Assembly (NCBI RefSeq): GCF_000316575.1
Contig: NC_019682.1
Location: 1,116,001 to 1,180,000, forward strand
Reading direction: 5' to 3'
Origin: Calothrix sp. PCC 7507
GTDB lineage: Bacteria > Cyanobacteriota > Cyanobacteriia > Cyanobacteriales > Nostocaceae
DNA: 64,000 bases
Shown: one piece after another, positions 1 to 15,335 of the stretch
Numbering within the stretch: position 1 is the stretch's first letter
Layout: every line of letters starts with the position of its first letter
Translations under genes and position numbers: made by a program
Notes under the pieces: model-generated
Databases searched by the model: none
Seen by the model: the letters and a program-made list of their open reading frames with translations, nothing else
What the model was told of the DNA's origin: nothing

Positions 1-888
1 TTCAATTTCAGTTAAGGGTTTACCTGGCTGGGAACCCCAAACACGAAATCCGTGGATGTAATCTTTTTGATTTTCGCTGCCTACGATTAAAGTACCGCGA
101 TCGCCATATACTTCTACCCAATGGGTTCTGGATGCATGAACAACGGCACTGATGGTAACTTGGCAAGGTGTCCCATCAGCCAATTCCAGCGTTAGTAAAC
201 AGTTATCATCTGTCTCTACTGGTTTGACTTCACTGCTAACAGGATCAACACGTGTGGGAATAGCGGTGCTTAAATGGGCGCTTAATCTGCGAACTGGGCC
301 AAATAACCAATAAATATAATCAAAGGCGTGGGAACCCAAAGAACCCAGCGCACCCCCTCCCTTTTCTTGGGAAGAATACCAGTTCCAAGGGCGGGAAGCA
401 TCAGCGCGAGAGGAACCTAACCAATCAATCCTAATTAACCGTTTTTTGCCTACATAATCTGCTGACAATAATTCTGCAAATAATTGCCATCCTGGGACAA
501 AGCGAAATTCAAAGTCTACAGTAGCAATTACACCTTTGTCTCTAGCTAATTGATAAAGTTCTTTAGCTTCATCTGCATTTAAAGCTGTGGGTTTTTCGAG
601 TAATAAATGTTTCCCTGCTTGCAGCACTTTTTTCGCCATTTCATAGTGCAAAAATGGCGGTGTGGAAATGCTGACGGCTTGCACTTCTGGTAATGCTAAA
701 ATGTCTGCAATTGTGTCGCAGGCGTGGCGGATATTATATGATTCTGCTATGGCTTTAGCTTTATTAATATCGCGGTGATAAACAGCGACTACCGCTGTGC
801 GGTGATGTGCTTGTAATCCCGGAATATGAACTTTTTGACCAAATCCCGTGCCAATAATCGCCACACCAATTGTATTTTGATTTTTCAT
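1..888 (-). CDS. Gfo/Idh/MocA family oxidoreductase (3' end cut by window)
   Basis: NAD(P)-dependent oxidoreductase of the Gfo/Idh/MocA family, which acts on sugars, inositol or related polyols; the substrate cannot be told from sequence. The frame reads from ATG at 888 to the window edge, giving 296 residues with no stop. The N-terminus has the dinucleotide-binding Rossmann glycine motif (GVAIIGTGFGQ, about residues 8-18), and further on the family's EKP motif (LLLEKPTALN), whose lysine is catalytic. A Gly-rich stretch (EKGGGALGSLGSHAFDY) carries the conserved histidine of the C-terminal domain. About 50-70 residues are probably missing beyond the edge. It is monocistronic as far as can be seen. 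Family is certain, substrate unknown. Confidence 0.9.
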   Translation of the reverse strand, partial: MKNQNTIGVAIIGTGFGQKVHIPGLQAHHRTAVVAVYHRDINKAKAIAESYNIRHACDTIADILALPEVQAVSISTPPFLHYEMAKKVLQAGKHLLLEKPTALNADEAKELYQLARDKGVIATVDFEFRFVPGWQLFAELLSADYVGKKRLIRIDWLGSSRADASRPWNWYSSQEKGGGALGSLGSHAFDYIYWLFGPVRRLSAHLSTAIPTRVDPVSSEVKPVETDDNCLLTLELADGTPCQVTISAVVHASRTHWVEVYGDRGTLIVGSENQKDYIHGFRVWGSQPGKPLTEIE

Positions 889-903
889 ATTTAATAAATA
901 AAA

Positions 904-977
904 CTATCTCAAAACTCGAATTCTCAAAGGATAGCGATTATTATCGCTATTATAAGCTTTAAATACTGCAAAATTCA
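904..977 (-). pseudogene. Truncated copy of the 3' end of the DUF4870 gene
   Basis: This stretch is a diverged duplicate of the last 75 bases of the neighbouring DUF4870 gene (1098-1172). It would encode NFAVFKAYNSDNNRYPLRIR + VLR and a stop, against NFAAFKAYHGDYYRYPLTIR + VLR in the intact gene. The upstream part is missing: homology ends at about 977, just where the palindromic repeat 981-1036 begins. The substitutions keep the frame, so the copy was probably functional for a while before truncation. Confidence 0.6.
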
Positions 978-980
978 TAC

Positions 981-1036
981 GTAGGGTGGGCAATGCCCAC
1001 CAAAACCCCGAATGTGGTGGGCATTGCCCACCCTAC
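981..1036. repeat. Palindromic intergenic repeat (GTAGGGTGGGC type)
   Basis: Imperfect inverted repeat: the left arm GTAGGGTGGGCAATGCCCAC is answered by GTGGGCATTGCCCACCCTAC on the right, separated by about 15 bases. The same GTAGGGTGGGCA(C/T)TGCCCACC unit recurs at 8896-9241 (split by an insertion), 22023-22090 and 42882-42931, so it is a dispersed repeat family rather than a gene-specific terminator. Confidence 0.8.
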
Positions 1037-1097
1037 AAATAATGAGATTTTAAAAAAATCAAAAAACTATGCTTTAAAACTTCACAGATGACAAAAC

Positions 1098-1565
1098 TTA
1101 TCTCAAAACTCGAATGGTCAAAGGATAGCGATAGTAATCACCATGATAAGCTTTAAATGCTGCAAAATTCACTAAAAATAATTGCAATAATAACATGATT
1201 GTAGTAATTAAAAACCACACAGATATTAAACCATCTAAAACCATCTTCATTTCATCTCCTGCGCGTTTGTTAGTCACTGCAATAGCACAGATGAATAACA
1301 TTACCAGCAAGGAAATGATGATGATAATTAACGTGTAAAATGTTAGTGAAAGTTGAAAATTCAAAGCTTCTTTACCTTGAAAATCAATCCAGGGAGATTT
1401 GGCTTTATTGAATTGCCAAATTATTAGCGGCAATAAAATATTCAGGGGGAGATAGAAAGGAATGCCGATAAATACTAAGGAAAACAAGAGTATCCATGCT
1501 AACAAAGCCGAAAAATGACAGAACATTGCCCATATACGCATTTTTTGTTGGGGTTTTTCTCTCAT
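1098..1565 (-). CDS. DUF4870 domain-containing membrane protein
   Basis: Small integral membrane protein of 155 residues. Three hydrophobic segments are visible (about residues 15-50, 74-98 and 113-135), with the family's short motif WIDFQGKEALNFQLS between the first two; this W/F-x-x-x-Q-x-K/R-E-A-x-N-x-Q pattern is typical of DUF4870 (Tic20-like) proteins. No catalytic residues are known for the family and no function is assigned. The ATG at 1565 lacks an obvious Shine-Dalgarno. A truncated copy of its 3' end lies downstream at 904-977. Confidence 0.8.
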   Translation of the reverse strand: MREKPQQKMRIWAMFCHFSALLAWILLFSLVFIGIPFYLPLNILLPLIIWQFNKAKSPWIDFQGKEALNFQLSLTFYTLIIIIISLLVMLFICAIAVTNKRAGDEMKMVLDGLISVWFLITTIMLLLQLFLVNFAAFKAYHGDYYRYPLTIRVLR

Positions 1566-1639
1566 GGCTTTTTATTTGACAAGTGGATTTGGGCGATGAT
1601 TCCTGATCCTAGTATCTACAAAAAAAGCTAGCCCAAAGC

Positions 1640-2803
1640 TTAAAATTTGAGTAGTTCTCGCTCATAGTTTTCAGGAAGGGGTTCAATTTCCCAGACTATA
1701 CCTTCACCTGGTTCTAAAGCAACCTCCACGAAGAGTTGTTCGACGGCGGTTGTCGCAATGTCTTCGTTGTCGGGGAAGGGTTGCAAATCTTCGGTAAGTA
1801 GTCTGAGTTTGAAACCACCGGGGATGGCTACGCCAACGGTGGCGTTACGTAACTCAAAGCGCCAAACTATCTCGTCTGCTTCGCCTTTTGGTGTGATGCT
1901 GAGGTTGTATAATTGACCTGCGATCGCTAGCTGGCGAGAAAGTGTCACCTCTGCTTGTGTTTCTTCGGCACTCCTAGCCCCAGCCGCACTCAATTGCAAA
2001 TTCAACCGTCCCCAACCCAGATTTTCAGCCGCTTGGGAAACGCCGTTTTGCAGCCATTGCAAAACTGACCATTGTTCTGGTAGTCCCAAACGTTGTTGAT
2101 ATAAGCTTTGCCGCCAGCCGCCATGCTCTATTAACGCCCCCCAAAGTTGAAAAGGAACAGCTAACCGTGGTGTGAGGATTTCGGACTTTCCCAGGCGAGC
2201 AATGAGATTTTGTGCTTGTTGTTGTGGTAAATTTGGTAATTGTGGGATAGCTGCGCGTGTTGGTGTTTGAGAACAGAGTTCTCGCGCTACAGCTAAAACG
2301 CTAATGTCTCCATTAATGTCAGTAGCATCAAGGGCATAAGTGCGATCGCCTGCATCATAACTACCCTGATTCTTCAGTTGTGCATGGGTACAATAGCCCC
2401 AAACCCTAACGTAACCTTCATCGGCTTCCACTTGCACCGCTAAATAATAGTCACCAGCCAAACTAGGTAAATCCACCCATTCCTGCGACACTCGCAACTC
2501 GCTTAAATCTATCGTCTCACTGGGAACCAAGATAAATCGAGTCGCGTCAACTGTGACTGCGGTTCCGTTTACGAGTTCCCAAAAACTCGGCAAAACAGTG
2601 GTAGTCGGCCAAACCTTTGCCTGTTGTGTAAAGTCCTCTTGTAACCAAGGCAAGACTGCACCCAGGCAAAGTTCATTAATATAAGCTTGATAGCGAGATA
2701 TAGGGTTAGAAAAAGCTGGACTGTGAATATCCGCCCGATTTTGTATGCTGGTGGGGATTTCTAAAAATAAGTCAGTTGGGTTAGCAAATGTAAATGTAGT
2801 CAT
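1640..2803 (-). CDS. DUF1822 family protein
   Basis: 387-residue soluble protein of the cyanobacterial DUF1822 family. The N-terminus (FTFANPTDLFLEIP, then SRYQAYINELCLGAVLPWL) matches what is known of the family, where a conserved helix precedes a long beta-rich region; WVDLPSLAGDYYLAVQVEAD follows in the middle. No catalytic motif or signal peptide is evident. It lies 64 bases downstream of the sigma factor gene at 2868-4049 on the same strand and is probably co-transcribed. From what I know of such genomes, DUF1822 genes often accompany sigma-like or CHAT genes, so a regulatory partnership is plausible but inferred. Biochemical function is unknown. Confidence 0.85.
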   Translation of the reverse strand: MTTFTFANPTDLFLEIPTSIQNRADIHSPAFSNPISRYQAYINELCLGAVLPWLQEDFTQQAKVWPTTTVLPSFWELVNGTAVTVDATRFILVPSETIDLSELRVSQEWVDLPSLAGDYYLAVQVEADEGYVRVWGYCTHAQLKNQGSYDAGDRTYALDATDINGDISVLAVARELCSQTPTRAAIPQLPNLPQQQAQNLIARLGKSEILTPRLAVPFQLWGALIEHGGWRQSLYQQRLGLPEQWSVLQWLQNGVSQAAENLGWGRLNLQLSAAGARSAEETQAEVTLSRQLAIAGQLYNLSITPKGEADEIVWRFELRNATVGVAIPGGFKLRLLTEDLQPFPDNEDIATTAVEQLFVEVALEPGEGIVWEIEPLPENYERELLKF

Positions 2804-2867
2804 GGCGGTTACTCCGGGGAAGCCGATGCTGTGATTTTTCGCTTTATGAGTTAGATAATTTCATACT

Positions 2868-4049
2868 TCATACTTCATACTTCAGTTGACTGTAGTGATT
2901 TTGCAGCCATTCTTCCATTACTATACTCATGGTTTTGAGTAGGTCTGGGGTGATGGAAATATGCAGGGTGTTTTGACTCCAGTTGGCGAGGGAACGGAGT
3001 AAGGTTTCTCTGGCTTTGGTGAGTCGTCGGGAAACGGTGTATTGTTTGATTTCTAATTGTTTGGCGATTTTGTCTTGATTTTGTCCTTGGGCGTAGTAAA
3101 GTTGGAGGATTTGCCGTAAGTCTAATTCTAGTTGGGCGATCGCTGTTACTAAAACTTGGTTAACTTCGGTTTGTTGGGATGTTCTGGCTTGTTCTTCTTC
3201 TTGGGCAATAATTTCACTAATTAAGGATTCTTGTTGGGTTCCTGGGAGGTTGTCTAGCAATTCCCAAGAATCATCGCTGCTTTTGGAAACGTTGAGAGAC
3301 TCGGGTGTGGGATAGAGATATCTACGGGTGGCTTTTGCAGCGGCTAGTAGCCATTTTTCTAGGGTTTGGGGGCTGATATTTTGGCTACTTTGGGAATTAT
3401 ACGCTTTGGCGATCGCATCCCATGTTTGATCTTCTGGGCGGGAAATTTTGCGGGAAGTGCCAGTTGAGGTGGGAACGTAGATAGTTTTAAAGGAGTTCCA
3501 AGCCAGGATATAGGCGGGAATCTCCTCTGGCGGTAAACCAGCATTTTGTAAGGATTCTTGTAACCGCTTTTGGGAGATTTTTCGCAACAATCCCCAATCT
3601 GTGCAGATATCAACTTCGTGGCGTTGGCGTAGGGTTTCGCGGATTGCACTGCCAAAGATGGGGCTAGCGTAGTTTTTGAGGGTAAAACCTTGATTAGGAT
3701 TGAATCCTTTAAGTACTTTATCAATTTGCGCGATCGCAATCTGAAAACAGTCTGACAACTGGTACTGGGTACTGGCAAAATTAGTCACTGTTTTTTGGGA
3801 TACCCAATAACAGGATTCTTGTAAGTAAGCCGTCAAATGTTGCTGGGCTAAGGTTTGAGTTTCGGGTATCTGCCAAATCTTATACCAGTAAAGCGCCCAA
3901 AAAGATTCAGAAGATTCTTGGGGTGTGCGGTTGACACAATTTTGGATACTATGACGCAATCTTGATTCTGTCGCCCAACGACTGAAGCGATCGGCAACGA
4001 ATTGTACAAAAGTTGAAAAAATTTCAATAATGCTTTGCCGAGGATGCAT
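2868..4049 (-). CDS. RNA polymerase sigma factor, sigma-70 family (alternative, divergent)
   Basis: 393 residues. A region-2-like segment is visible around residues 105-140 (QIAIAQIDKVLKGFNPNQGF, then TLKNYASPIFGSAIRETLRQ), the usual core-binding and -10 recognition helices. Region 4 lies near the C-terminus (about residues 308-355: LDLRQILQLYYAQGQNQDKI, then KQLEIKQYTVSRRLTKARET), a helix-turn-helix for -35 recognition. The long linker and extra N-terminal part are unlike group 1/2 cyanobacterial sigma factors, so this is a specialised group 3/4-like factor; no gene letter is assigned. It starts 81 bases from the divergent secreted-protein gene at 4131 and is followed by DUF1822, which may be its partner or regulator. 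Confidence 0.85.
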   Translation of the reverse strand: MHPRQSIIEIFSTFVQFVADRFSRWATESRLRHSIQNCVNRTPQESSESFWALYWYKIWQIPETQTLAQQHLTAYLQESCYWVSQKTVTNFASTQYQLSDCFQIAIAQIDKVLKGFNPNQGFTLKNYASPIFGSAIRETLRQRHEVDICTDWGLLRKISQKRLQESLQNAGLPPEEIPAYILAWNSFKTIYVPTSTGTSRKISRPEDQTWDAIAKAYNSQSSQNISPQTLEKWLLAAAKATRRYLYPTPESLNVSKSSDDSWELLDNLPGTQQESLISEIIAQEEEQARTSQQTEVNQVLVTAIAQLELDLRQILQLYYAQGQNQDKIAKQLEIKQYTVSRRLTKARETLLRSLANWSQNTLHISITPDLLKTMSIVMEEWLQNHYSQLKYEV

Positions 4050-4058
4050 AAAAAAATA

Positions 4059-4100
4059 GACGCCTACCTATAAAAGCAGTGAAGGCGTTAAAGAACGCCT
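4059..4100. promoter_or_regulatory. Inverted-repeat cluster between divergent genes
   Basis: The 81-base divergent gap between the sigma factor (start 4049, minus) and the secreted protein (start 4131, plus) holds the hexamer ACGCCT near 4060, then the hairpin AGGCGTT-AAAG-AACGCCT at 4083-4100. The first copy can also pair with AGGCGT. It could be an operator for either gene or a 5' UTR structure of the plus-strand gene. This is inference from symmetry alone. Confidence 0.4.
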
Positions 4101-4130
4101 GCACAAACTTTACTACAAGGAATGGGAATC

Positions 4131-4919
4131 ATGTTTCGACTTTCCCTAAAATCTTTAACACTCGGTAGCCTGGTAGCTATTGCCACTGCAACTAGCGCCT
4201 TTGCCCAAGTACCCACACCACAAAATTTACATCTAACACCAGCACCAAACTTTAGTTGTGGCCCTCATCTCCGGACTTACGTTGTTAAGCCTTTAGATAA
4301 CCGTCAAGGCTTTGGTATCCGTTGCGTCAAGTTTAGCGAAGGTAGACCAGAAACAACAATCCCCAAAATAGCATGGTACGGCGAAGGCAATTGGGGCGGT
4401 TCAACCTATCGCCACGCTGGACAAGCAATTTACAGAGGTTCTAATCTCGTTGGTTTTGCTTCCGATATTTATGGTAACGGCGAAAACATCAACAACAACT
4501 TTCCAGGAAACCTCAGAGTAGAAATACTCGGTTCCACAATTCGTGTCACTGGTGCGTGGAATGAAGAATGGAAATTAGTCAATGCTACTAACTATAAACC
4601 GTTATCTCGCCCACGGACTTGTGGTGGCTATTTCGACCAATACAAAGTTTCTGACTTAACAGGAAATCGCCAAGGTGAAGGCTTACGTTGCGTTCTCCGT
4701 GTCGGACCTCAAAATACTACTTGGTTTGGCAATGGTAACTGGGGAGGTTCAACTTATTCCCACATCGGCACTAAGTCATTTAATGGTTACGGTGCTGGCG
4801 ATATTTGTGCAACTGGTTTAGGACCAATTTGTAATACCTTCGGCTACGGTTCTTTGAAATTAACTCCCGTATCTGGTGGTTTTGATGTCACTGGCGCTTG
4901 GAGTGAAAAATGGCGGTAG
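4131..4919 (+). CDS. Secreted protein with two internal repeats
   Basis: 262-residue protein with a clear signal peptide (LSLKSLTLGSLVAIATATSAFAQ, cleavage likely after AFA). The mature part is a duplication: each half contains a cysteine-bearing opening (SCGPHLRTYVVKPLDNRQGFG and TCGGYFDQYKVSDLTGNRQGEG), a R-C-V/L strand, W-(Y/F)-G-(E/N)-GNWGGSTY-x-H-(A/I)-G, and a closing G-x-x-R/D-V-T-G-A-W-(N/S)-E-(E/K)-W. This suggests two similar beta domains, perhaps disulfide-linked. Start 4131 is preferred over an in-frame ATG at 4122 because AAGGA (4117-4121) sits 9 bases before 4131 but touches 4122. Function unknown; divergent from the sigma factor. Confidence 0.75.
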   Translation: MFRLSLKSLTLGSLVAIATATSAFAQVPTPQNLHLTPAPNFSCGPHLRTYVVKPLDNRQGFGIRCVKFSEGRPETTIPKIAWYGEGNWGGSTYRHAGQAIYRGSNLVGFASDIYGNGENINNNFPGNLRVEILGSTIRVTGAWNEEWKLVNATNYKPLSRPRTCGGYFDQYKVSDLTGNRQGEGLRCVLRVGPQNTTWFGNGNWGGSTYSHIGTKSFNGYGAGDICATGLGPICNTFGYGSLKLTPVSGGFDVTGAWSEKWR

Positions 4920-4952
4920 CTAACTCATGATAAACGTCATTTGTCATTGGAA

Positions 4953-4994
4953 TTGATAACTGATAACTGATAACTGTTAACTGATAACTGATAA
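4953..4994. repeat. Heptameric short tandem repeat (TGATAAC)
   Basis: Tandem TGATAAC/TGTTAAC units occupy the gap between two secreted-protein genes and reach to within about 15 bases of the second start codon. Same family as the arrays near 6329, 25935 and 40174. Confidence 0.8.
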
Positions 4995-5009
4995 TTGAGT
5001 GTTAATAAA

Positions 5010-5480
5010 ATGTTGAAACGTACTTTGACAATTGCTGCTGCCACCACAGCTTTAGCTGCTGCTTTAGCTAGTCCCGCTTTGGCTGCACCTGCTGATTTTG
5101 TTGGTACTTGGGTTAATAAAGATGCCAATACTCGCGGTGTGACTCGTCTGGTAGTTACTTCTGCTGGAGGCAATAATTTAAATATTCAAGTGTTTGGCAA
5201 ATGTCATCCTACAGACTGTGAATGGGGCACAAAACCATTAGTAACTTATGGAATTAATGTCCAAGATACTAACCATAATTATGCAACAACCAACTACAAT
5301 CAAGGTTTTTCCAATTCTTTATTAACTTTCAGCTATGGCGGCAATGAAGTTTTATTTCAAGGCTATACACAGTTTTTAGATAATAGCGGGAGGCAAAATT
5401 ATTACTCTCGTGAATATTTCCAACGACAATCAAAAGTGAAGATTCCTGTAAGTGTTCCTAGAATACCTATTCGTCCTTGA
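5010..5480 (+). CDS. Small secreted protein of unknown function
   Basis: 156 residues beginning MLKRTLTIAAATTALAAALA and continuing SPALAAPADFVGTWVN: a textbook signal peptide with cleavage after ALA. The mature part starts with FVGTWVN, then a beta-rich stretch with two cysteines in GKCHPTDCEWG, resembling small beta-barrel lipocalin-like secreted proteins, but no family is recognised. ATG 5010 is chosen over an in-frame TTG at 4995, which lies in the tandem repeat. It follows the other secreted protein by 90 bases on the same strand and could share its transcript. Confidence 0.7.
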   Translation: MLKRTLTIAAATTALAAALASPALAAPADFVGTWVNKDANTRGVTRLVVTSAGGNNLNIQVFGKCHPTDCEWGTKPLVTYGINVQDTNHNYATTNYNQGFSNSLLTFSYGGNEVLFQGYTQFLDNSGRQNYYSREYFQRQSKVKIPVSVPRIPIRP

Positions 5481-5578
5481 GAACACGCGATTAATTAAAT
5501 TATTTGTATGAAATTCACGGTAGAGGCACAACATTGTTGTGCCTTTTCATGTCAATATCCAACATTATTTATTTTCCA

Positions 5579-6283
5579 TCAGCCTTGCAACTGGTGAACG
5601 AATGCTTGATGTTCCACTGAACTTAGCCCCTGTTGTAACACTGCTAATACCTGTGGCATATTTCCGCTAACTAACGCTAATACATCCAACCACAAACCCG
5701 GAAACACTTGACTTTGAATTACGCTTTCTGCATCTGGTGTCAGCGCCACATATTCACCATCTTTGAGGCTAAACCAACTGACAGCGCTTTCAAAAACTTG
5801 CCAAACAATATATTCTTGAATCCCATTGCGACGATAGGCACGCTTTTTATCATACAAATCTTTGGTAGCACTGCTAGCTGCAACTTCCGCCACTAATTCT
5901 GGTGCGCCTTCCACATATCCATCAGCACCCAAATGCGACTGTCCACCACGGGCGGCATCGATTAATAAAATAGCATCAGGTTGGGGTTCATTATCTAAAT
6001 CTAGCCTCACAGTTGGATTATCACCTAATCTGACACCAGGCGTAGCTACTTTATAATTTCCTAACCAAATCATCAAATTAGCATGTGGTTCGGCGTGGGG
6101 TTCAAAGCGTAAAGGGGAAGCCACGTATACAACTCCTTCAATTAGTTCAGCTTTTTTGAGATTCGGCATAGCATTGTAGCGGCGCTCAAATTCTAGACGA
6201 TTTAGCCGATCGCCACTCTCAAGATGCGGAATATAATTGGGGGAAGCGGCTGGAGTCGGCTGTTGTGAAGAGGTGTTAACCAT
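5579..6283 (-). CDS. Uma2 family endonuclease (DUF820, PD-(D/E)XK fold)
   Basis: 234 residues. Recognised by the Uma2 pattern: ERRYNAMPNLKKAELIEGVV at the N-terminus, then QPDAILLIDAARGG (the PD aspartate), GAPELVAEVAASSATKDLYD with the acidic E-V-A strand, and KKRAYRRNGIQEYIVWQVFE. These map to the acidic and lysine positions of the restriction-endonuclease-like fold. The family is heavily expanded in cyanobacteria and is annotated as putative endonuclease; biological roles are unproven. The C-terminal 40 residues are less conserved. No partner gene is seen next to it. Confidence 0.9.
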   Translation of the reverse strand: MVNTSSQQPTPAASPNYIPHLESGDRLNRLEFERRYNAMPNLKKAELIEGVVYVASPLRFEPHAEPHANLMIWLGNYKVATPGVRLGDNPTVRLDLDNEPQPDAILLIDAARGGQSHLGADGYVEGAPELVAEVAASSATKDLYDKKRAYRRNGIQEYIVWQVFESAVSWFSLKDGEYVALTPDAESVIQSQVFPGLWLDVLALVSGNMPQVLAVLQQGLSSVEHQAFVHQLQG

Positions 6284-6328
6284 AACCGCAAGCGTTAAAT
6301 ATGGGTAAATTGATCTTATCAGTTATCA

Positions 6329-6362
6329 ATAAATCTGATAACTGATAACTGTTCACTGATTA
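6329..6362. repeat. Heptameric short tandem repeat
   Basis: Degenerate CTGATAA/CTGTTCA units between the Uma2 gene and the secreted-protein gene at 6366-6935, running up to the stop codon of the latter. Confidence 0.6.
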
Positions 6363-6365
6363 TAG

Positions 6366-6935
6366 TTAGGGATTAATTGCAGAATTAGCCATTTTAATTA
6401 AAGAAGTGCGATCGCCTGCTTTCAAACCTACAGCATACTGCACACCTTTTTGTCGCCAAGTCAAGGTCGCATCTGAGCAATTAGCCCCACAACTAAAATC
6501 TACAAAATAGCCAGTAATGCCTTTAGCTAAAGATACCGTTTTACCAGTGAGGCGGGGTGTTTTGCTTGTCACAGCTTCAGCCGTCACGATACCCAAACGA
6601 CAAGCAGTCCCGCCTGTACAATCAGGACTGAAGCCTAGTAAAATTTCGTATTTTTTAGGTGTCGCATTTTCTAAAATTGCGTACAGTGGGTCTTCCCGTT
6701 CTACACCAGGAATCAACTTCGGTAATATAATGGGAATTTGAGTCTTTTGCTTTAATTTAGGTAAAATCGGCTTAAAAACCGCATGTTGTTTGGCATTATT
6801 AGTACTAACTCCCCCTTGTGCTATTAGCTGAGATTGACTGTTGATAGATGCGATCGCTGAATTATGCCAGCTGCTAGCACTAGCTAGCAACATTACCGCA
6901 CAGACAACACTGAAATTTTTTAGCCTGAAAATCAT
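6366..6935 (-). CDS. Secreted protein of unknown function
   Basis: 189 residues with a signal-peptide-like N-terminus (FRLKNFSVVCAVMLLASASS, then WHNSAIASI). The mature part carries four cysteines in two pairs (SPDCTGGTACRLG and FSCGANCSDATLTW), which probably form disulfides outside the cytoplasm, and ends in a beta-rich segment (WRQKGVQYAVGLKAGDRTSL). No family is recognised. The gene stands alone, 89 bases downstream of the stop of the nuclease-TPR gene's opposite end and on the same strand. Confidence 0.65.
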   Translation of the reverse strand: MIFRLKNFSVVCAVMLLASASSWHNSAIASINSQSQLIAQGGVSTNNAKQHAVFKPILPKLKQKTQIPIILPKLIPGVEREDPLYAILENATPKKYEILLGFSPDCTGGTACRLGIVTAEAVTSKTPRLTGKTVSLAKGITGYFVDFSCGANCSDATLTWRQKGVQYAVGLKAGDRTSLIKMANSAINP

Positions 6936-9312: not shown

Positions 9313-10635
9313 CTATCGATAATCTTGTCTTTGAATGCTTCTTAACCGAGCCGCATCACGCATATTATAATCACTACGAGTGAAGCGATTTAATTGCGCC
9401 TCAAAGAACTCTCGATTTGCTTGTAAGTGCTTGGGATTTTGGTCATCTAAAGGATATAAAAGCGCAGTTCTTAAGGCTTGAATGACTGCAGAAGTGACGT
9501 TATACATTGACCTTTGGAAACTCACGCCCAATTGAATCAACATATCGGCTTCACCTCGGCAATATTGTTTGTAATAATCCACTAGATATTGTGGCAAGAA
9601 GTGCAACATATCTTGCATTAATAATGTTGGTGGAATTCCAGCAGTGCCTACGGGGAAAACATCAGCGTAGAGAATGCCGTAATGGAAGTCTTTTTGATCT
9701 TCGGGTACTTGACCTGCTTGAGCATTATAAGATTTTGTGCCTCTAAAGGGTGCAGTCCGATAAAAGACAGCTTCTACATAGGGTAATGCGGCTTCATATA
9801 GCCAAGTGAAACCCTTAGATTTGGGGATAATTTCGTAACACTCGCCGTTAATATAAACGTGGTGATAGATTGGGCGTCCGGCGATCGCAAATATGCCATT
9901 AACTAAGAAATTCATGGCATCTGGAACACCTTTAAAGCCGCCTTCATCATAGATATCGGACATTTCAAAGAATACCGGTGCCATGACTTCCCAGAATAAG
10001 CCGAGATTGGAGTAGTAAGACATCTGGCGGCACTGTTCTAAGAACATATCGGGGAACAGCTTATGCAGCCCTAACATGACTGGGTTGCCTTGAAAATAAG
10101 CCTTAATTGCCCGATCAGCATTAGCTTTATATTCTTCTGAGTCCAGGTAAGCATCAAATTGGTTGACTGGTGCGTACATGTGACGATGCCAAAGCATAGC
10201 CCGCATACAAGCTTCAGCAAATTCCATATTAATGCGATCGTGGAATAAATGATGAAACAACCTCGGCATCTTGGAAGTTTCACCCTTCTCGATAAATGCC
10301 AATAGTTCAGGATGGGCTTTGGCTGTACCACGCCAAATTCTTAAATCGGCGTCATCACCAGCATAATGATTGTGTCTGTCTAGATACTCTTTGGGTAAGA
10401 AGTATTTAAAGAAGGGTAAGGGGTTGAGAAATTCGCGTTCTGCAATATAGAGGAGATCACGCCAGTAAAAATCCATCGGCACTGCATAAGCTTTGTATAA
10501 GCCGATGATTTGCATTAAGTTTTCTGGCGTATCTGGCAACATTGAACCACCAGCTTCTAAGCGGTGAATTACGTCAGCAAATTCATGTGTGGAAGGAGGT
10601 AATTTTGTGGTTGAGGGGATAGTGGTTGTTGTCAT
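9313..10635 (-). CDS. cupA/cupB: CO2 hydration protein (ChpX/ChpY, CupA/CupB family)
   Basis: 440 residues, the subunit that couples NDH-1 electron flow to CO2-to-bicarbonate conversion on the cytoplasmic face of the thylakoid. Diagnostic segments are VIHRLEAGGSMLPDTPENLM (residues 22-41), YKAYAVPMDFYWRDLLYIAE and LFHHLFHDRINMEFAEACMR (127-146). The His/Arg-rich stretch H128-R134 is where metal ligands of the family would be expected (inference). It is the last gene of the ndhF-ndhD operon. No cupS-like gene follows, and this argues for the constitutive NDH-1MS' (CupB) set rather than the inducible NDH-1MS (CupA-CupS) set, but length alone does not settle it. Confidence 0.9.
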   Translation of the reverse strand: MTTTTIPSTTKLPPSTHEFADVIHRLEAGGSMLPDTPENLMQIIGLYKAYAVPMDFYWRDLLYIAEREFLNPLPFFKYFLPKEYLDRHNHYAGDDADLRIWRGTAKAHPELLAFIEKGETSKMPRLFHHLFHDRINMEFAEACMRAMLWHRHMYAPVNQFDAYLDSEEYKANADRAIKAYFQGNPVMLGLHKLFPDMFLEQCRQMSYYSNLGLFWEVMAPVFFEMSDIYDEGGFKGVPDAMNFLVNGIFAIAGRPIYHHVYINGECYEIIPKSKGFTWLYEAALPYVEAVFYRTAPFRGTKSYNAQAGQVPEDQKDFHYGILYADVFPVGTAGIPPTLLMQDMLHFLPQYLVDYYKQYCRGEADMLIQLGVSFQRSMYNVTSAVIQALRTALLYPLDDQNPKHLQANREFFEAQLNRFTRSDYNMRDAARLRSIQRQDYR

Positions 10636-10650
10636 GATAATTGGTTTTTA

Positions 10651-11244
10651 CTAAATTTCAGGTTGTTCTATTAATAATTCTTGACGCAGCTTGAGAGCAT
10701 GAAAAATACTCAACACATCATGTTTCCAAACTGGCAGTATGAGTGTCATGGCGATTTCTTCGATACTATAAATAAAGCCAGCAATACAAGTCAGCCATAA
10801 GGGAATTCCAGCATAGTTAAAACCGAATAGAGCGACAATGGCAATAAAAAGTGTTATCCCCCAAAACTTTGCTGAGTAGGTGTGATAGCTAGCAGGTTTA
10901 CCATATTTGACTAAATTTACTATCCACCACACCAACTGAGCAAAAACAACTGTTAATAAAGGCCAGCGAAAATCAATGACAACATCTCTATAAACCAGCC
11001 ACGCACTCACAAAAATACAGCTAAAAAGGCAGACATCCGCCCAACTATCGGCTTGTCGTAATTGGGCATTGCTAACACCCAAGCGTCTGGCTATAATGCC
11101 ATCGAAAATATCAGAGAGAAAGGCCGCTACAAAACCAACGATGAACCAAATACTGGTTTTGCCATCTAAGGCATCCCAGAGGAGGAATGGAGATATGAAA
11201 AAACGAAATAATACAAGTCCAGTGGGAATTAATGTGAGATTCAT
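10651..11244 (-). CDS. CDP-alcohol phosphatidyltransferase family protein
   Basis: 197-residue membrane enzyme of the family that moves a phosphoalcohol between CDP-activated lipids or head groups. The signature D-x2-D-G-x2-A-R-x8-G-x3-D-x3-D is visible as SDIFDGIIARRLGVSNAQL, then RQADSWAD, with all four aspartates, but the central glycine is leucine. Five or six hydrophobic segments follow. It has the strongest Shine-Dalgarno of the region (AAGGAGG four bases before ATG 11244). It sits 65 bases after ndhD and 15 bases before the CO2 hydration gene, so it is in the same operon. The substrate is unknown. Its presence in a CO2-uptake operon is unexplained. Confidence 0.85.
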   Translation of the reverse strand: MNLTLIPTGLVLFRFFISPFLLWDALDGKTSIWFIVGFVAAFLSDIFDGIIARRLGVSNAQLRQADSWADVCLFSCIFVSAWLVYRDVVIDFRWPLLTVVFAQLVWWIVNLVKYGKPASYHTYSAKFWGITLFIAIVALFGFNYAGIPLWLTCIAGFIYSIEEIAMTLILPVWKHDVLSIFHALKLRQELLIEQPEI

Positions 11245-11309
11245 CTTTCCTCCTTGATTCAGTGCGTAGCTTTCTATTAGCTTAATAACTACAAGCTAAT
11301 TACTGATAT

Positions 11310-12815
11310 TTACGGCTTCAAGGCTACTTCAGAGGGGACAACTTTTTCCAACATCGGAATTGCAGCTACCATTGCTGTGGTTGTTGGTTCACTCCAACGC
11401 ACTAACCAAGTGGGTTGAACTCCCAAAAAGATAATTAAAGCTGTCAACACTAAAGCTGGTGTTTTTTCAGACCACATTACTCTGGCATAGTAGGCTTTGT
11501 TGTTATCGAGTTTGCCAAAACAGGTACGATTCAAGAGGATGACGAAATACACTGCGGTTAAGGCGCTAGATAATACACACAACAGTGTGGGTATGGGGAA
11601 GTTGGCGAAACTACCTTGAAAGACGAGAAATTCGGCGACGAATCCCGTTAATCCAGGAATGCCAGCGCTAGCCATACCGCTGAGAACTAGTAGGGCACTA
11701 ATGAGGGGTAAGCCGCGGATGGGACTCATTAAACCATTGAGTTGATCTAATTCGCGGGTGCCAACTTTAACTTCGACAATGCCTACTAAGAGGAAGAGGA
11801 CGGCGAGAATAATGCCGTGGCTAAACATTTGGGCGACTGCGCCAACAAGTGCGAGGGGGGTGCTAGCAGCACCAGCTACCAATATATAACCCATGTGTCC
11901 GATGGAACTATAGGCTACCATGCGCTTGATGTCTGTTTGGGCGATCGCTACTAATGCCCCATAAATAGCACTGATTGCTCCCCAAATTGCTAAGGTTGGC
12001 GCAAGCGTACTCCAAGCTTCCGGAAACATCCCCAATCCAAACCGCAATAGTCCATAGGTTCCTAGCTTTGCCAATACACCACCTAGTAAAATAGCGATCG
12101 GTGCGGAAGCTTCAACATAAGCATCCGGTAGCCAAGTATGGAAGGGAACTAGGGGAATTTTGATGCCAAAACCCACAATTATCCCTGCAAGCAAGATAAT
12201 TTGCATTCCGGCTGAAAGGGTTTGGGTAGAGACAGCGTCAAAAGCAAAACTGGAAGCACCAGTCAGCCATACCATACCCAGGAAGGTAGCGAGAATTAGA
12301 GCACCTGATACAGCGGTATAAATGAGGAATTTAATCCCAGCATAAGCCCGTTTTTCCCCTCCCCAAATTGAAATCAGCAGATAAAAAGGGATTAATTCTA
12401 GTTCGTAAAACAGGAAGAATAGCAGTAAATTCTCTGCTAAAAATGCACCTGCAACCCCACCACTCACTAATAGGATTAGTGAATAAAAAAGCCGTGGTCG
12501 TTGAGTCTGCTGACTGCTGCTATAAATAGCAACCCAAGTGAGTAGGCTATTTAAAACCAACATCAATATTGATAGTCCATCAACCCCTAGTTGATAGCTT
12601 AGTCCGAGGGTTTCATTCCAAGGTAGATACTCTCGAAACTGCATCCCCGGATTACTGGGATCAAATTTCAGCAAGATGAACAGATTCCAGAGAAGAACTA
12701 GGCCAGATAAAGTGAGAGATACTAAACGAATTCTACTTGCTTGGGCTGCCCCACCAGGCCAAAACCCGATAATTGCCGCACCTATAATTGGTGTCCAGAT
12801 TAATACACTCAGCAT
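11310..12815 (-). CDS. ndhD: NAD(P)H-quinone oxidoreductase subunit 4 (NdhD-type antiporter subunit)
   Basis: Proton-pumping membrane subunit of the cyanobacterial NDH-1 complex, homologous to NuoM. Fourteen or so transmembrane helices; typical signatures are NLLLFFLFYELELIPFYLLI (the conserved glutamate of the pump), GFGIKIPLVPFHTWLPDAYV and VAIAQTDIKRMVAYSSIGHM. Start ATG 12815 (MLSVLIWTPIIG) is preferred to an in-frame TTG at 12842 that lies in a GGTCAAG repeat. It follows ndhF by 78 bases and precedes the CDP-alcohol transferase. With the Cup gene downstream it is of the NdhD3/NdhD4 class used for CO2 uptake; the exact paralogue (D4 favoured because cupS is missing) is inferred. Confidence 0.92.
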   Translation of the reverse strand: MLSVLIWTPIIGAAIIGFWPGGAAQASRIRLVSLTLSGLVLLWNLFILLKFDPSNPGMQFREYLPWNETLGLSYQLGVDGLSILMLVLNSLLTWVAIYSSSQQTQRPRLFYSLILLVSGGVAGAFLAENLLLFFLFYELELIPFYLLISIWGGEKRAYAGIKFLIYTAVSGALILATFLGMVWLTGASSFAFDAVSTQTLSAGMQIILLAGIIVGFGIKIPLVPFHTWLPDAYVEASAPIAILLGGVLAKLGTYGLLRFGLGMFPEAWSTLAPTLAIWGAISAIYGALVAIAQTDIKRMVAYSSIGHMGYILVAGAASTPLALVGAVAQMFSHGIILAVLFLLVGIVEVKVGTRELDQLNGLMSPIRGLPLISALLVLSGMASAGIPGLTGFVAEFLVFQGSFANFPIPTLLCVLSSALTAVYFVILLNRTCFGKLDNNKAYYARVMWSEKTPALVLTALIIFLGVQPTWLVRWSEPTTTAMVAAIPMLEKVVPSEVALKP

Positions 12816-12893
12816 GGTAATTTTGGATTTTTTAAAGGTCAAGGGTCAAGGGTCAAAGATCAAGTTCCAGAATTTGGACTCCTAACTCCTAAC

Positions 12894-14753
12894 TCAAAAC
12901 ATCAACTCTAAAAATTGCACTCCCCAGAATGGCCAAGCTACCCACATTCCTAAGACGCTGACTCCTAAGAGGACGGTGAACGCATAAAATTGGGTTTGTC
13001 CGGAGGTGCTGTATTTAAGTCCTTGTCCACTCAAGAGGGAAAATAAACCGACCAGATTAACAATCCCATCAATTACTAAGCGGTCTAGCATGTCGGCAAA
13101 TTTGGCAATTTGGGCGACGCCATTAACGATAGTGAGGCGATAGATTTGGGCGGTGTAAAAGTCGTAGGCGAAAAAATCTCTTAAACCTTTCCAAGGGAAG
13201 CGGATTGGTTTTTGCCAATTTCCTAAATGAATGACGGCACTAATGCTGCACCCAAAAATGGTTGACCAAATTAGCAGAAGTGCAACATCTTTATTCAGGT
13301 CTACCCAACTGGGTAGCAGTGATAAGCTTTGTAATACTAGGGGGAGATGCAAGACAAATCCTAACAAAATTACCATTGGCAATACCATTGGCCAGTGTAC
13401 TTCAGGCGATCGCTCACTCATCTGCTTGGCTTTACCACCAAAAATTAAGCCAAATTCTCTGGTTAAACTAAAGGCTGTCAAACCATTAACTGCTATAACT
13501 ACTCCCACCAACCAAGGTTGCTTGTCCCACAGCCCATCTCCTAATCTCATTAATGCCCAAAAGCTACCTAGGGGCGGAAATCCAATTAATCCCAAACCAC
13601 CGACGATAAATGCTAAGGCTGATATGGGACGGCGTGACCATAATCCACCGAGTTGGTTGATGTCTTGGGTGATACTGTTCCAAACAATTCCCCCGGTACT
13701 CATGACTAGTAGGGCGGCGGACACTGCATGGGTAAGTACCAACAACAGCGCGGCTTCATCTTCTCTCACTCCCACGGCGATGAAGACTAAACCCATGTAA
13801 GCACTGACAGAATAGGATTGACAGCGCTTAATATCAGTTTGGGCGATCGCAATTAAGGAAGCACCAACGGCTGTGACTGCACCAATTGCAACTATAGTGG
13901 AGGAAACTATCGGCGATAAGGTTAAAACTGGTTGCAGTTTAATCAGCACCCATGCACCACTGGCAACTACTACTGAGTTCCGTAAAATCGTACTGGGAAC
14001 CGGCCCTTCCATCGCCTCATCTAGCCACAAATGCAAGGGGAACTGGGCGCACTTACCCATAGGCCCGGCGATTAACGCTAAACCCACTAGGGTGATTACT
14101 GTGGGGTTAACGTTTGCAGTCGTCGCCCACTCAGCTAGTTCTGTATAATCCCACGTTCCCGCTAGAGGCCATAATGCCAACACCCCCATCAGCAAAAACA
14201 AGTCACCTACCCGTTTGGTTAAGAATGCATCTCTTGCACCGGTAACTACTAAAGGTTGGCTAAACCATAAGCCGACTAAAAGGTAGGTTCCTAAAGTGAG
14301 AATTTCTAAGATTACATAGCTGAAGAACAAGTTGTTACATAAAACTAGGGCAGATAATCCGGCTTCAAAAAATCCTAATAAGGAAAAGAAGCGTCCCCAT
14401 CCCCAATCCATTTCCATGTAACCTACTGCATAAATCTGGGCGAGGAAATTCAAGCCTGTAATCACGACCACTGCACCCACACTCGCCGCAGATATTTCTA
14501 CAGCAATTGTGAGGTTTAACCCTGCAGTCGAAAGCCAAGGAATAAATAGTTCTATGGGTGGCTGATTCCATGAGGCGAATAAAGCGATCACACTGTGAAC
14601 CAGCGCTAAAAACGTCATTACCAAATTTACATACCCAGCCGGTCTTGGCCCTGTGCGGCGAATGATCCCCGGTGACCAAGGGACAGCTAATAACCCACCT
14701 ATTAGGGCATAGCAAGGAACTAGCCAAACAGTCTCAAGGAGAAACTGAGCCAT
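12894..14753 (-). CDS. ndhF: NAD(P)H-quinone oxidoreductase subunit 5 (NdhF-type antiporter subunit)
   Basis: 619 residues, homologous to NuoL, the distal proton-pumping subunit that determines which NDH-1 variant is built. Signatures include YAVGYMEMDWGWGRFFSLLG, CAQFPLHLWLDEAMEGPVPS and ASLIAIAQTDIKRCQSYSVS, and it has sixteen or so hydrophobic helices. It is shorter than NdhF1 (about 680-700), as is usual for NdhF3/F4, the CO2-uptake forms. ATG 14753 has GAGG about 9 bases upstream. It is the first gene of the four-gene operon that ends in the CO2 hydration protein. Confidence 0.92.
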   Translation of the reverse strand: MAQFLLETVWLVPCYALIGGLLAVPWSPGIIRRTGPRPAGYVNLVMTFLALVHSVIALFASWNQPPIELFIPWLSTAGLNLTIAVEISAASVGAVVVITGLNFLAQIYAVGYMEMDWGWGRFFSLLGFFEAGLSALVLCNNLFFSYVILEILTLGTYLLVGLWFSQPLVVTGARDAFLTKRVGDLFLLMGVLALWPLAGTWDYTELAEWATTANVNPTVITLVGLALIAGPMGKCAQFPLHLWLDEAMEGPVPSTILRNSVVVASGAWVLIKLQPVLTLSPIVSSTIVAIGAVTAVGASLIAIAQTDIKRCQSYSVSAYMGLVFIAVGVREDEAALLLVLTHAVSAALLVMSTGGIVWNSITQDINQLGGLWSRRPISALAFIVGGLGLIGFPPLGSFWALMRLGDGLWDKQPWLVGVVIAVNGLTAFSLTREFGLIFGGKAKQMSERSPEVHWPMVLPMVILLGFVLHLPLVLQSLSLLPSWVDLNKDVALLLIWSTIFGCSISAVIHLGNWQKPIRFPWKGLRDFFAYDFYTAQIYRLTIVNGVAQIAKFADMLDRLVIDGIVNLVGLFSLLSGQGLKYSTSGQTQFYAFTVLLGVSVLGMWVAWPFWGVQFLELMF

Positions 14754-15143: not shown

Positions 15144-15335
15144 TCAAATTTTCTGCTCTTTACCTAATCCCCAGTCCATAATCTCAGCAGCGATCGCCGG
15201 CGTTTGGTAGGATTGACTGATAGGAGCTGGTTTCATGTCGCGGACATCCAGTAACTGGACAAGAATCAGGTAGGCGATCGCTAACAGAACAGAAATCGCA
15301 CCTGTAATAATGGCAACAATTTTCGAGCGGTTCAT
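15144..15335 (-). CDS. Small single-pass membrane protein
   Basis: 63 residues: basic start MNRSKI, one transmembrane helix (VAIITGAISVLLAIAYLILV) and a 33-residue tail rich in Pro and Gln. Start ATG 15335 is preceded by AGGA at a suitable distance, and an in-frame TTG three bases upstream is less likely. It may be a conserved cyanobacterial hypothetical protein, but no function is known. No operon partner. Confidence 0.6.
   Translation of the reverse strand: MNRSKIVAIITGAISVLLAIAYLILVQLLDVRDMKPAPISQSYQTPAIAAEIMDWGLGKEQKI

What the first reader, a model, noticed from the sequence alone, without database searches (positions are those of the whole stretch)
10651..11244. CDP-alcohol phosphatidyltransferase with altered signature inside a CO2-uptake operon
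The gene lies between ndhD and the CO2 hydration gene, with 65- and 15-base gaps and the strongest Shine-Dalgarno of the operon. The four signature aspartates are kept, but the central glycine of DG-x2-AR-x8-G-x3-D-x3-D is leucine. NDH-1MS-type operons as I know them hold ndhF, ndhD, cup and sometimes cupS, not a lipid enzyme. It may tailor a membrane lipid needed by the complex or have an unrelated role.
Basis: partly seen in the sequence, partly recalled or inferred. Interest (0 to 1): 0.7.

Follow-up and report, generated by a model that had tools for sequence, protein, structure and literature searches.

The report
Altered lipid enzyme in CO2-uptake operon
A membrane enzyme related to those that build phospholipid head groups sits inside a cyanobacterial CO2-uptake operon; it keeps the catalytic centre but lacks residues that normally hold the cytidine part of the substrate, so what it makes is an open and testable question.

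Summary
The gene at 10651-11244(-) is real, under purifying selection, and lies between ndhD and a CO2-hydration (cup) gene. This is not unique to the window: 45 of 80 named relatives have cup downstream. The Leu replacing the second signature glycine is real and fixed in the subfamily (Leu 103, Val 1 of 104 rows); 40 of 40 other cyanobacterial family members checked keep Gly. The Leu is not tied to CO2 uptake: the 53 rows not beside cup have it too (one Val), and two genomes carry the gene with only the other cup cluster.

The new point is a second change in the same pocket. The TM1 Thr/Ser that binds the cytosine amine, described in print as present in all such enzymes, is Val/Ile in 102 of 103 readable rows and Thr/Ser in 40 of 40 controls. 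Four Asp, Gly1, Ala and Arg are kept in 104 of 104.

Best reading: an active membrane phosphotransferase of this fold with a rebuilt donor-nucleotide cleft, probably not specific to CO2 uptake, carried in this operon by one lineage. Donor and product unknown. New variant of a known kind.

The parts
10651..11244 (-). CDP-AP-fold membrane protein, 197 aa: Val11 on TM1, motif D45-x2-D48-G49-x2-A52-R53-x8-L62-x3-D66-x3-D70
9313..10635 (-). CO2 hydration protein gene (cup; cupB-type by recall)
   Evidence: TIGR01964, PF10216
11310..12815 (-). ndhD (likely ATG start at 12815; longest ORF from TTG at 12842)
   Evidence: NF005611 over cut-off, matched from residue 10 of the long ORF
12894..14753 (-). 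ndhF
   Evidence: TIGR01960 over cut-off
11245..11309 (-). 65-base gap holding the AGGAGG ribosome-binding site of the 10651-11244 gene

Best explanation
A functional membrane enzyme of the CDP-alcohol phosphotransferase (CDP-AP) fold, from a distinct subfamily that I found almost only in cyanobacteria. Shown: the gene is under purifying selection; the four metal-binding aspartates and the Gly1/Ala/Arg residues are invariant; two residues that shape the cytosine pocket in solved relatives (Thr/Ser on TM1, second Gly on TM3) are replaced by bulky hydrophobic ones. Inferred: it still transfers a phosphate-linked group to an alcohol at the membrane with two metal ions, but holds its donor in a non-standard way (a CDP-alcohol seated differently, or a donor without cytosine). 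Inferred: its role is general membrane lipid or head-group chemistry, not a dedicated part of CO2 uptake; one lineage carries it inside the ndhF-ndhD-cup operon, inherits it with the operon and sometimes loses it.
For: D1, D2, G1, A, R, D3, D4 in 104 of 104 rows; G2 Leu 103 / Val 1; TM1 site Val 93, Ile 9, Thr 1, gap 1, against Thr 35 / Ser 5 of 40 controls; G2 Gly in 40 of 40 controls. Pocket role of these residues: PMC6506517 section 7, PMC4634129 section 9 and passages. dN/dS 0.07-0.16 in eight close pairs. Fold: PF01066, confident model (mean pLDDT 91.6) whose top four PDB matches are S. aureus PgsA chains. Not bound to CO2 uptake: 53 of 104 tree rows not scored beside cup (one of them, L102, only because its contig ends); G417 and G429 have the gene but only the other cup cluster; Plectonema L080 has it away from its ndhD-cup. 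Lipid link: TVP38/VTT gene closely downstream in 6 of 80 named loci and on one plasmid.
Against: No activity, substrate or product is known. The two pocket changes are shared by descent, so they are one or two events, not many. Foldseek E-values are weak (best 0.022). The position beside cup is kept in many genomes and the protein's divergence follows Cup and NdhD (r 0.80 and 0.85 over 49 loci), which could mean a shared function. I had no coordinates of the model, so pocket filling is argued from solved relatives.
Confidence: 0.58

Rival explanations
1. Ordinary CDP-DAG-dependent phospholipid synthase: Leu62 and Val11 are tolerated, CDP-DAG is bound and used as usual, with an unknown acceptor.
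For: Catalytic residues, Gly1, Ala and Arg intact; Pfam score over cut-off; [quoted passage not shown]
Against: Two residues of one pocket changed and then kept in a subfamily reaching 47% identity or less to the window protein; 40 of 40 controls keep both; no NCBIfam CDP-AP model reaches its cut-off.
Confidence: 0.22
2. Dedicated helper of the CO2-uptake complex: it makes or edits a lipid needed by this NDH complex.
For: Position between ndhD and cup in 45 of 80 named loci; divergence follows Cup and NdhD; a beta-carbonic anhydrase also occupies the operon in 24 of 80 loci, and a review reports EcaB associated with these complexes (PMC9283085 passage; orthology not tested).
Against: 25 of 30 fetched cup loci of the order lack the gene; it occurs without this cup type in G417 and G429 and elsewhere in the genome in many others; the ndhD-cup gap also holds unrelated genes.
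Confidence: 0.12
3. Catalytically dead membrane scaffold or assembly factor that kept only the fold.
For: Two donor-site residues lost.
Against: Four metal Asp, Gly1, Ala and Arg in 104 of 104 rows, and K113, H121, K126 and D176 also in 104 of 104.
Confidence: 0.05

Closest known systems
Phosphatidylglycerophosphate synthase PgsA (TIGR00560; structures 7drj/7drk)
   Same: Fold (TM 0.59-0.64 by query length), Asp motif with identical spacing, similar length
   Different: G2 Leu for Gly, TM1 Val for Thr; the Arg-Glu pair on TM4 invariant in 15 cyanobacterial PgsA is not seen at those columns; TIGR00560 not matched by the window protein at E 0.001
Mycobacterial/Renibacterium phosphatidylinositol-phosphate synthases (6h59, 5d92)
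   Same: CDP-AP fold with the four-Asp metal centre
   Different: They keep G2 and the TM1 D/T pair that bind the cytidine; weak structural match (TM 0.45-0.50)
Thiothrix fructosivorans plasmid copy WP_207249210.1 (annotated CDP-alcohol phosphatidyltransferase family protein)
   Same: 36% identical, Leu at G2, shared K, H and W-x2-D positions
   Different: Keeps Thr at the TM1 site; not beside cup; Gammaproteobacteria
CDP-alcohol phosphatidyltransferase of Nostoc phosphonate clusters (PMC5987646)
   Same: A CDP-alcohol phosphatidyltransferase in Nostoc in a non-PgsA context
   Different: Lies in a pepM phosphonate cluster (figure legend passage only); sequences not compared

Membership tests
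CDP-alcohol phosphotransferase (enzyme class) | PF01066 over its curated cut-off | tested here: met
   59.9 bits, cut-off 22
CDP-alcohol phosphotransferase (enzyme class) | Six-helix CDP-AP fold | tested here: met
   Model pLDDT 91.6; six top PDB matches are CDP-APs, but E 0.022 at best
CDP-alcohol phosphotransferase (enzyme class) | Full eight-residue signature D1xxD2G1xxAR...G2xxxD3xxxD4 (PMC4634129 passage) | tested here: not met
   7 of 8 kept; G2 is Leu, and Leu/Val in 104 of 104 rows
CDP-alcohol phosphotransferase (enzyme class) | TM1 P(D/N)xx(T/S), Thr/Ser said to be in all CDP-APs (PMC4634129 section 9) | tested here: not met
   P-T-G-L-V; Thr/Ser in 1 of 103 readable rows, D/N in 0 of 103
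CDP-alcohol phosphotransferase (enzyme class) | Transfers a group from a CDP-alcohol, releasing CMP | not testable with these tools
   Needs an enzyme assay
PgsA (PGP synthase) | TIGR00560 over cut-off | tested here: not met
   No match listed at E 0.001; the genome's other PF01066 gene scores 173.9, cut-off 109.1
PssA or cardiolipin synthase ClsA | TIGR00473 / NF053678 over cut-off | tested here: not met
   24.8 against 107 and 22.9 against 240 bits
CO2-uptake ndhF-ndhD-cup operon | ndhF, ndhD and cup on one strand around the gene | tested here: met
   45 of 80 named loci
CO2-uptake ndhF-ndhD-cup operon | Genes transcribed as one mRNA | not tested
   Inferred from strand and the 15- and 65-base gaps only

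The most novel reading that the evidence does not exclude
A cyanobacterial subfamily of the CDP-AP fold has given up cytidine: it keeps the two-metal phosphotransfer centre but takes a donor without a CDP head, making a membrane lipid or head group not yet described in cyanobacteria, in one lineage from inside the CO2-uptake operon.
Probability: 0.22. Interest if true: 0.8.

Novelty: new variant of a known kind. Interest (0 to 1): 0.5.

Why it matters
The structural papers consulted treat the eight signature residues as absolutely conserved and the TM1 Thr/Ser as present in all CDP-APs (PMC4634129). This subfamily breaks both rules in one pocket while keeping the catalytic centre, so it can show whether the cytidine part of the donor is dispensable. 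Cyanobacterial membranes are usually described with four lipid classes (recalled), so a second CDP-AP-fold enzyme points to membrane chemistry that may not have been looked for. It also warns against reading function from operon position: the ndhD-cup gap carries different genes in different genomes.

Tried and rejected
Leu as a CO2-uptake-specific adaptation: rejected, the change is in the whole subfamily sampled. A one-off insertion in this genome: rejected. A second PgsA: not supported by profiles or by the TM4 columns. Phage or mobile origin: no match in phages at E 0.01; 3 of 72,556 plasmid records at E 0.001; a viral-contig scan matched 37 stretches, none a relative. PDB sequence search: single protein, one chance-like match; profile A1, the same one and PgsA at E 3.8. 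PHROGs: none. Relic search in 27 gene-less ndhD-cup gaps: one clear relic (L211, G306), one weak match (L054, E 0.001), 25 without; none in 540 shuffled sequences. The 3'-end similarity in G454 (about 29 bases of the gene, 22 matching by my count) was not recovered at the threshold and is only suggestive.

Literature: eight searches (one search returned nothing). I saw no report of a CDP-AP gene in a cup operon in the listings and passages seen; this covers one open library only. Read: section 7 of PMC6506517 and section 9 of PMC4634129. Passages only: those two, PMC9283085, PMC9120777, PMC5472144, PMC13249358, PMC5987646. Other papers: listings only.

Rows dropped and limits: one search left out matches under 150 aligned residues (this removes L107 and L128, both beside cup, whose matched stretch is not a multiple of three long), exact duplicates and repeat fetches of the window gene. 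L102, whose contig ends right after the gene in the order ndhF-ndhD-gene, was scored as not cup-adjacent. One search returned 80 of 409 candidates; its peptide patterns (first half of the motif, TM5 motif) do not include positions 11 or 62. Controls: one search lists 52 matches; 3 belong to this subfamily, 40 of the other 49 were fetched, 9 were not. The pattern by which cut out controls requires Gly at G2, so their 40-of-40 Gly is circular; the Gly count rests on (30 of 30, any residue allowed; 2; 8, read by eye). The Thr/Ser count is not affected. A loose text pattern for (N/D)xx(T/S) near the N-terminus hit 14 of 104 subfamily rows and 31 of 40 controls; these 14 do not lie at the aligned TM1 site, where no row has D or N and one has Thr. 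Adjacency in the 120-genome set was read from contig coordinates, so contig breaks can hide some.

Full report
WHAT IS THERE. Window 10651-11244 on the minus strand encodes a 197-residue membrane protein that matches PF01066 at 59.9 bits. Upstream on the same strand are ndhF (12894-14753) and ndhD (11310-12815), downstream is cup (9313-10635); the gaps to ndhD and cup are 65 and 15 bases, and of the four genes only this one has a full AGGAGG site by eye. The genome holds two PF01066 genes: this one and an ordinary PgsA with Gly at the second glycine position.

HOW WIDESPREAD. In 386 cyanobacterial genomes, 23 have a match; by my reading of the table 19 are full-length, one (G306) is a relic and three are weak and probably chance. 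Of the 19, 10 have the gene between ndhD and cup. A named-genome scan returned 80 of 409 candidate loci; 45 of 80 have ndhD upstream and cup downstream, and L102 has the same order up to its contig end. Among the 45 are Nostoc, Anabaena, Calothrix, Tolypothrix, Microcoleus, Tychonema and a Leptolyngbya. In 120 genomes of the window's order, 31 have a match, 28 of them more than a fragment; by contig coordinates 10 of the 28 are beside cup. Of the 30 cup loci fetched from that set, 5 have the gene and 25 do not. The one other genome of the same genus, G454, lacks it.

GAIN AND LOSS. In a tree of 104 rows, 51 scored cup-adjacent and 53 not, the label needs 6 changes against a mean of 35 for shuffled labels. 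Forty-eight of the 51 lie in one 50-row group (SH-aLRT 88, below the star level); L012, L109 and L117 lie outside it, as does L102. A separate 33-row group (95) has no cup-linked member. Over 49 cup-linked loci the protein's divergence follows Cup (r 0.80) and NdhD (r 0.85), as Cup follows NdhD (r 0.86); 0 of 999 permutations reached these values. I read this as inheritance with the operon. Losses occur: G306 keeps a C-terminal relic between ndhD and cup; G454 has a suggestive 3'-end trace. L164 and L167 carry one in-frame stop each. I cannot place the root, so whether the operon position is ancestral is open.

THE GLYCINE AND A SECOND CHANGE. Position 62 is Leu in 103 of 104 rows and Val in one, L013. 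In 40 other CDP-APs from the phylum it is Gly in 40 of 40. The Thiothrix plasmid relative, 36% identical and not beside cup, also has Leu. In M. tuberculosis PgsA1 the nucleotide lies in a cleft lined by G72, A75 and G85 and is hydrogen-bonded by D31 and T34 on TM1 (PMC6506517 section 7); G85 is the second glycine by its spacing to D89 and D93. PMC4634129 says the TM1 Thr/Ser is present in all CDP-APs within P(D/N)xx(T/S) (section 9) and calls the eight signature residues absolutely conserved (passage). In this subfamily the TM1 position (Val11) is Val 93, Ile 9, Thr 1 (Thiothrix), gap 1, and the D/N position is never D or N in 103 readable rows; controls have Thr 35 and Ser 5 of 40 at the first site and Asn in 30 of 40 at the second. 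The profile alignment with PgsA fixes the register: V11 on Thr, L62 on Gly. So two residues of one pocket are replaced by bulky hydrophobic ones while the four Asp, Gly1, Ala and Arg stay in 104 of 104. The rows are relatives of the window gene, so each change may be a single old event.

IS IT ACTIVE, AND WHAT DOES IT DO. dN/dS is 0.07-0.16 in eight close pairs and the metal centre is invariant, so a selected enzyme is more likely than a relic or scaffold. The AlphaFold2 model is confident (mean pLDDT 91.6); its four best solved matches are S. aureus PgsA chains, TM 0.59-0.64 by query length, but with weak Foldseek E-values (0.022 at best). The Arg-Glu pair invariant on TM4 of 15 cyanobacterial PgsA aligns with Gln103 and a hydrophobic residue here; instead K113, H121, K126 and D176 are in 104 of 104 rows. 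The acceptor is therefore probably not glycerol-3-phosphate held as in PgsA. Six of 80 named loci have a VTT-domain (TVP38-type) gene closely downstream (in L132 with one ORF between, in L125 as a short ORF; one representative tested by Pfam), and a Nostoc plasmid copy has one directly downstream; the family is linked to lipid scrambling (recalled), which fits membrane lipid chemistry. Donor, acceptor and product are not known.

IS IT PART OF CO2 UPTAKE. For: a stable position and shared inheritance. Also, a beta-carbonic anhydrase sits between ndhF and ndhD in 24 of 80 named loci (one representative tested by Pfam), and a review reports the carbonic anhydrase EcaB associated with these complexes (PMC9283085 passage); I did not test whether they are orthologues. 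Against: G417 and G429 have the gene but only the other cup cluster, their NdhD and Cup being closer to the window genome's second cluster (NdhD 73 and 65%, Cup 68 and 72%) than to the window's (60 and 56%, 43 and 41%). Plectonema NIES-515 has the small upstream ORF and this gene on a contig stretch without ndhF, ndhD or cup, its ndhD-cup pair being elsewhere. Many relatives have the operon without the gene. The ndhD-cup gap also holds other genes: cytochrome b561, an OB-fold-like and a DUF6697-like protein (both under their Pfam cut-offs), and in one locus a methyltransferase beside this gene. I take adjacency as weak evidence of shared function.

VERDICT. Observation confirmed; interpretation partly supported. 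By homology and fold it belongs with the CDP-APs, but it fails two tested features held to be universal for CDP-AP enzymes, so I do not file it as a CDP-alcohol phosphotransferase by activity. It most likely works like one in its phosphotransfer step. New variant of a known kind.

Noticed in passing
window 15144-15335 (-): Small ORF (63 aa from its second ATG/first Met pair) with one hydrophobic stretch upstream of ndhF, no Pfam or NCBIfam match; a relative is found in 21 of 80 named loci, in Plectonema (L080) right before the CDP-AP-fold gene.
   Followed up: partly
L058 3421-4158 and 23 other named loci: Beta-carbonic anhydrase gene with an SRRNLLKLGAGAVG-like N-terminus (twin-arginine type by eye) between ndhF and ndhD; absent in the window, where that gap is short.
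   Followed up: partly
L044 2832-3239, L047 1040-1447, L051 962-1345, L054 2892-3461: The ndhD-cup gap carries other genes in other genomes: DUF6697-like and OB-fold-like (both under Pfam cut-off) and cytochrome b561 (L047 by likeness to L044).
   Followed up: partly
L118 3476-4132, L139 6605-7267: VTT-domain (TVP38/TMEM64) gene just downstream of the CDP-AP-fold gene in loci without cup.
   Followed up: no
L138 (Allocoleopsis plasmid) 238-6558: A plasmid copy of the gene lies a few hundred bases after TnsA/Tn7-like transposition genes (TnsA, Mu-type transposase, TniB, TniQ annotations), a possible transposon cargo.
   Followed up: no
L137 7974-8567: The Thiothrix plasmid copy has Leu at G2 but keeps Thr on TM1, which would fit the glycine being lost before the threonine; a single case.
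   Followed up: no
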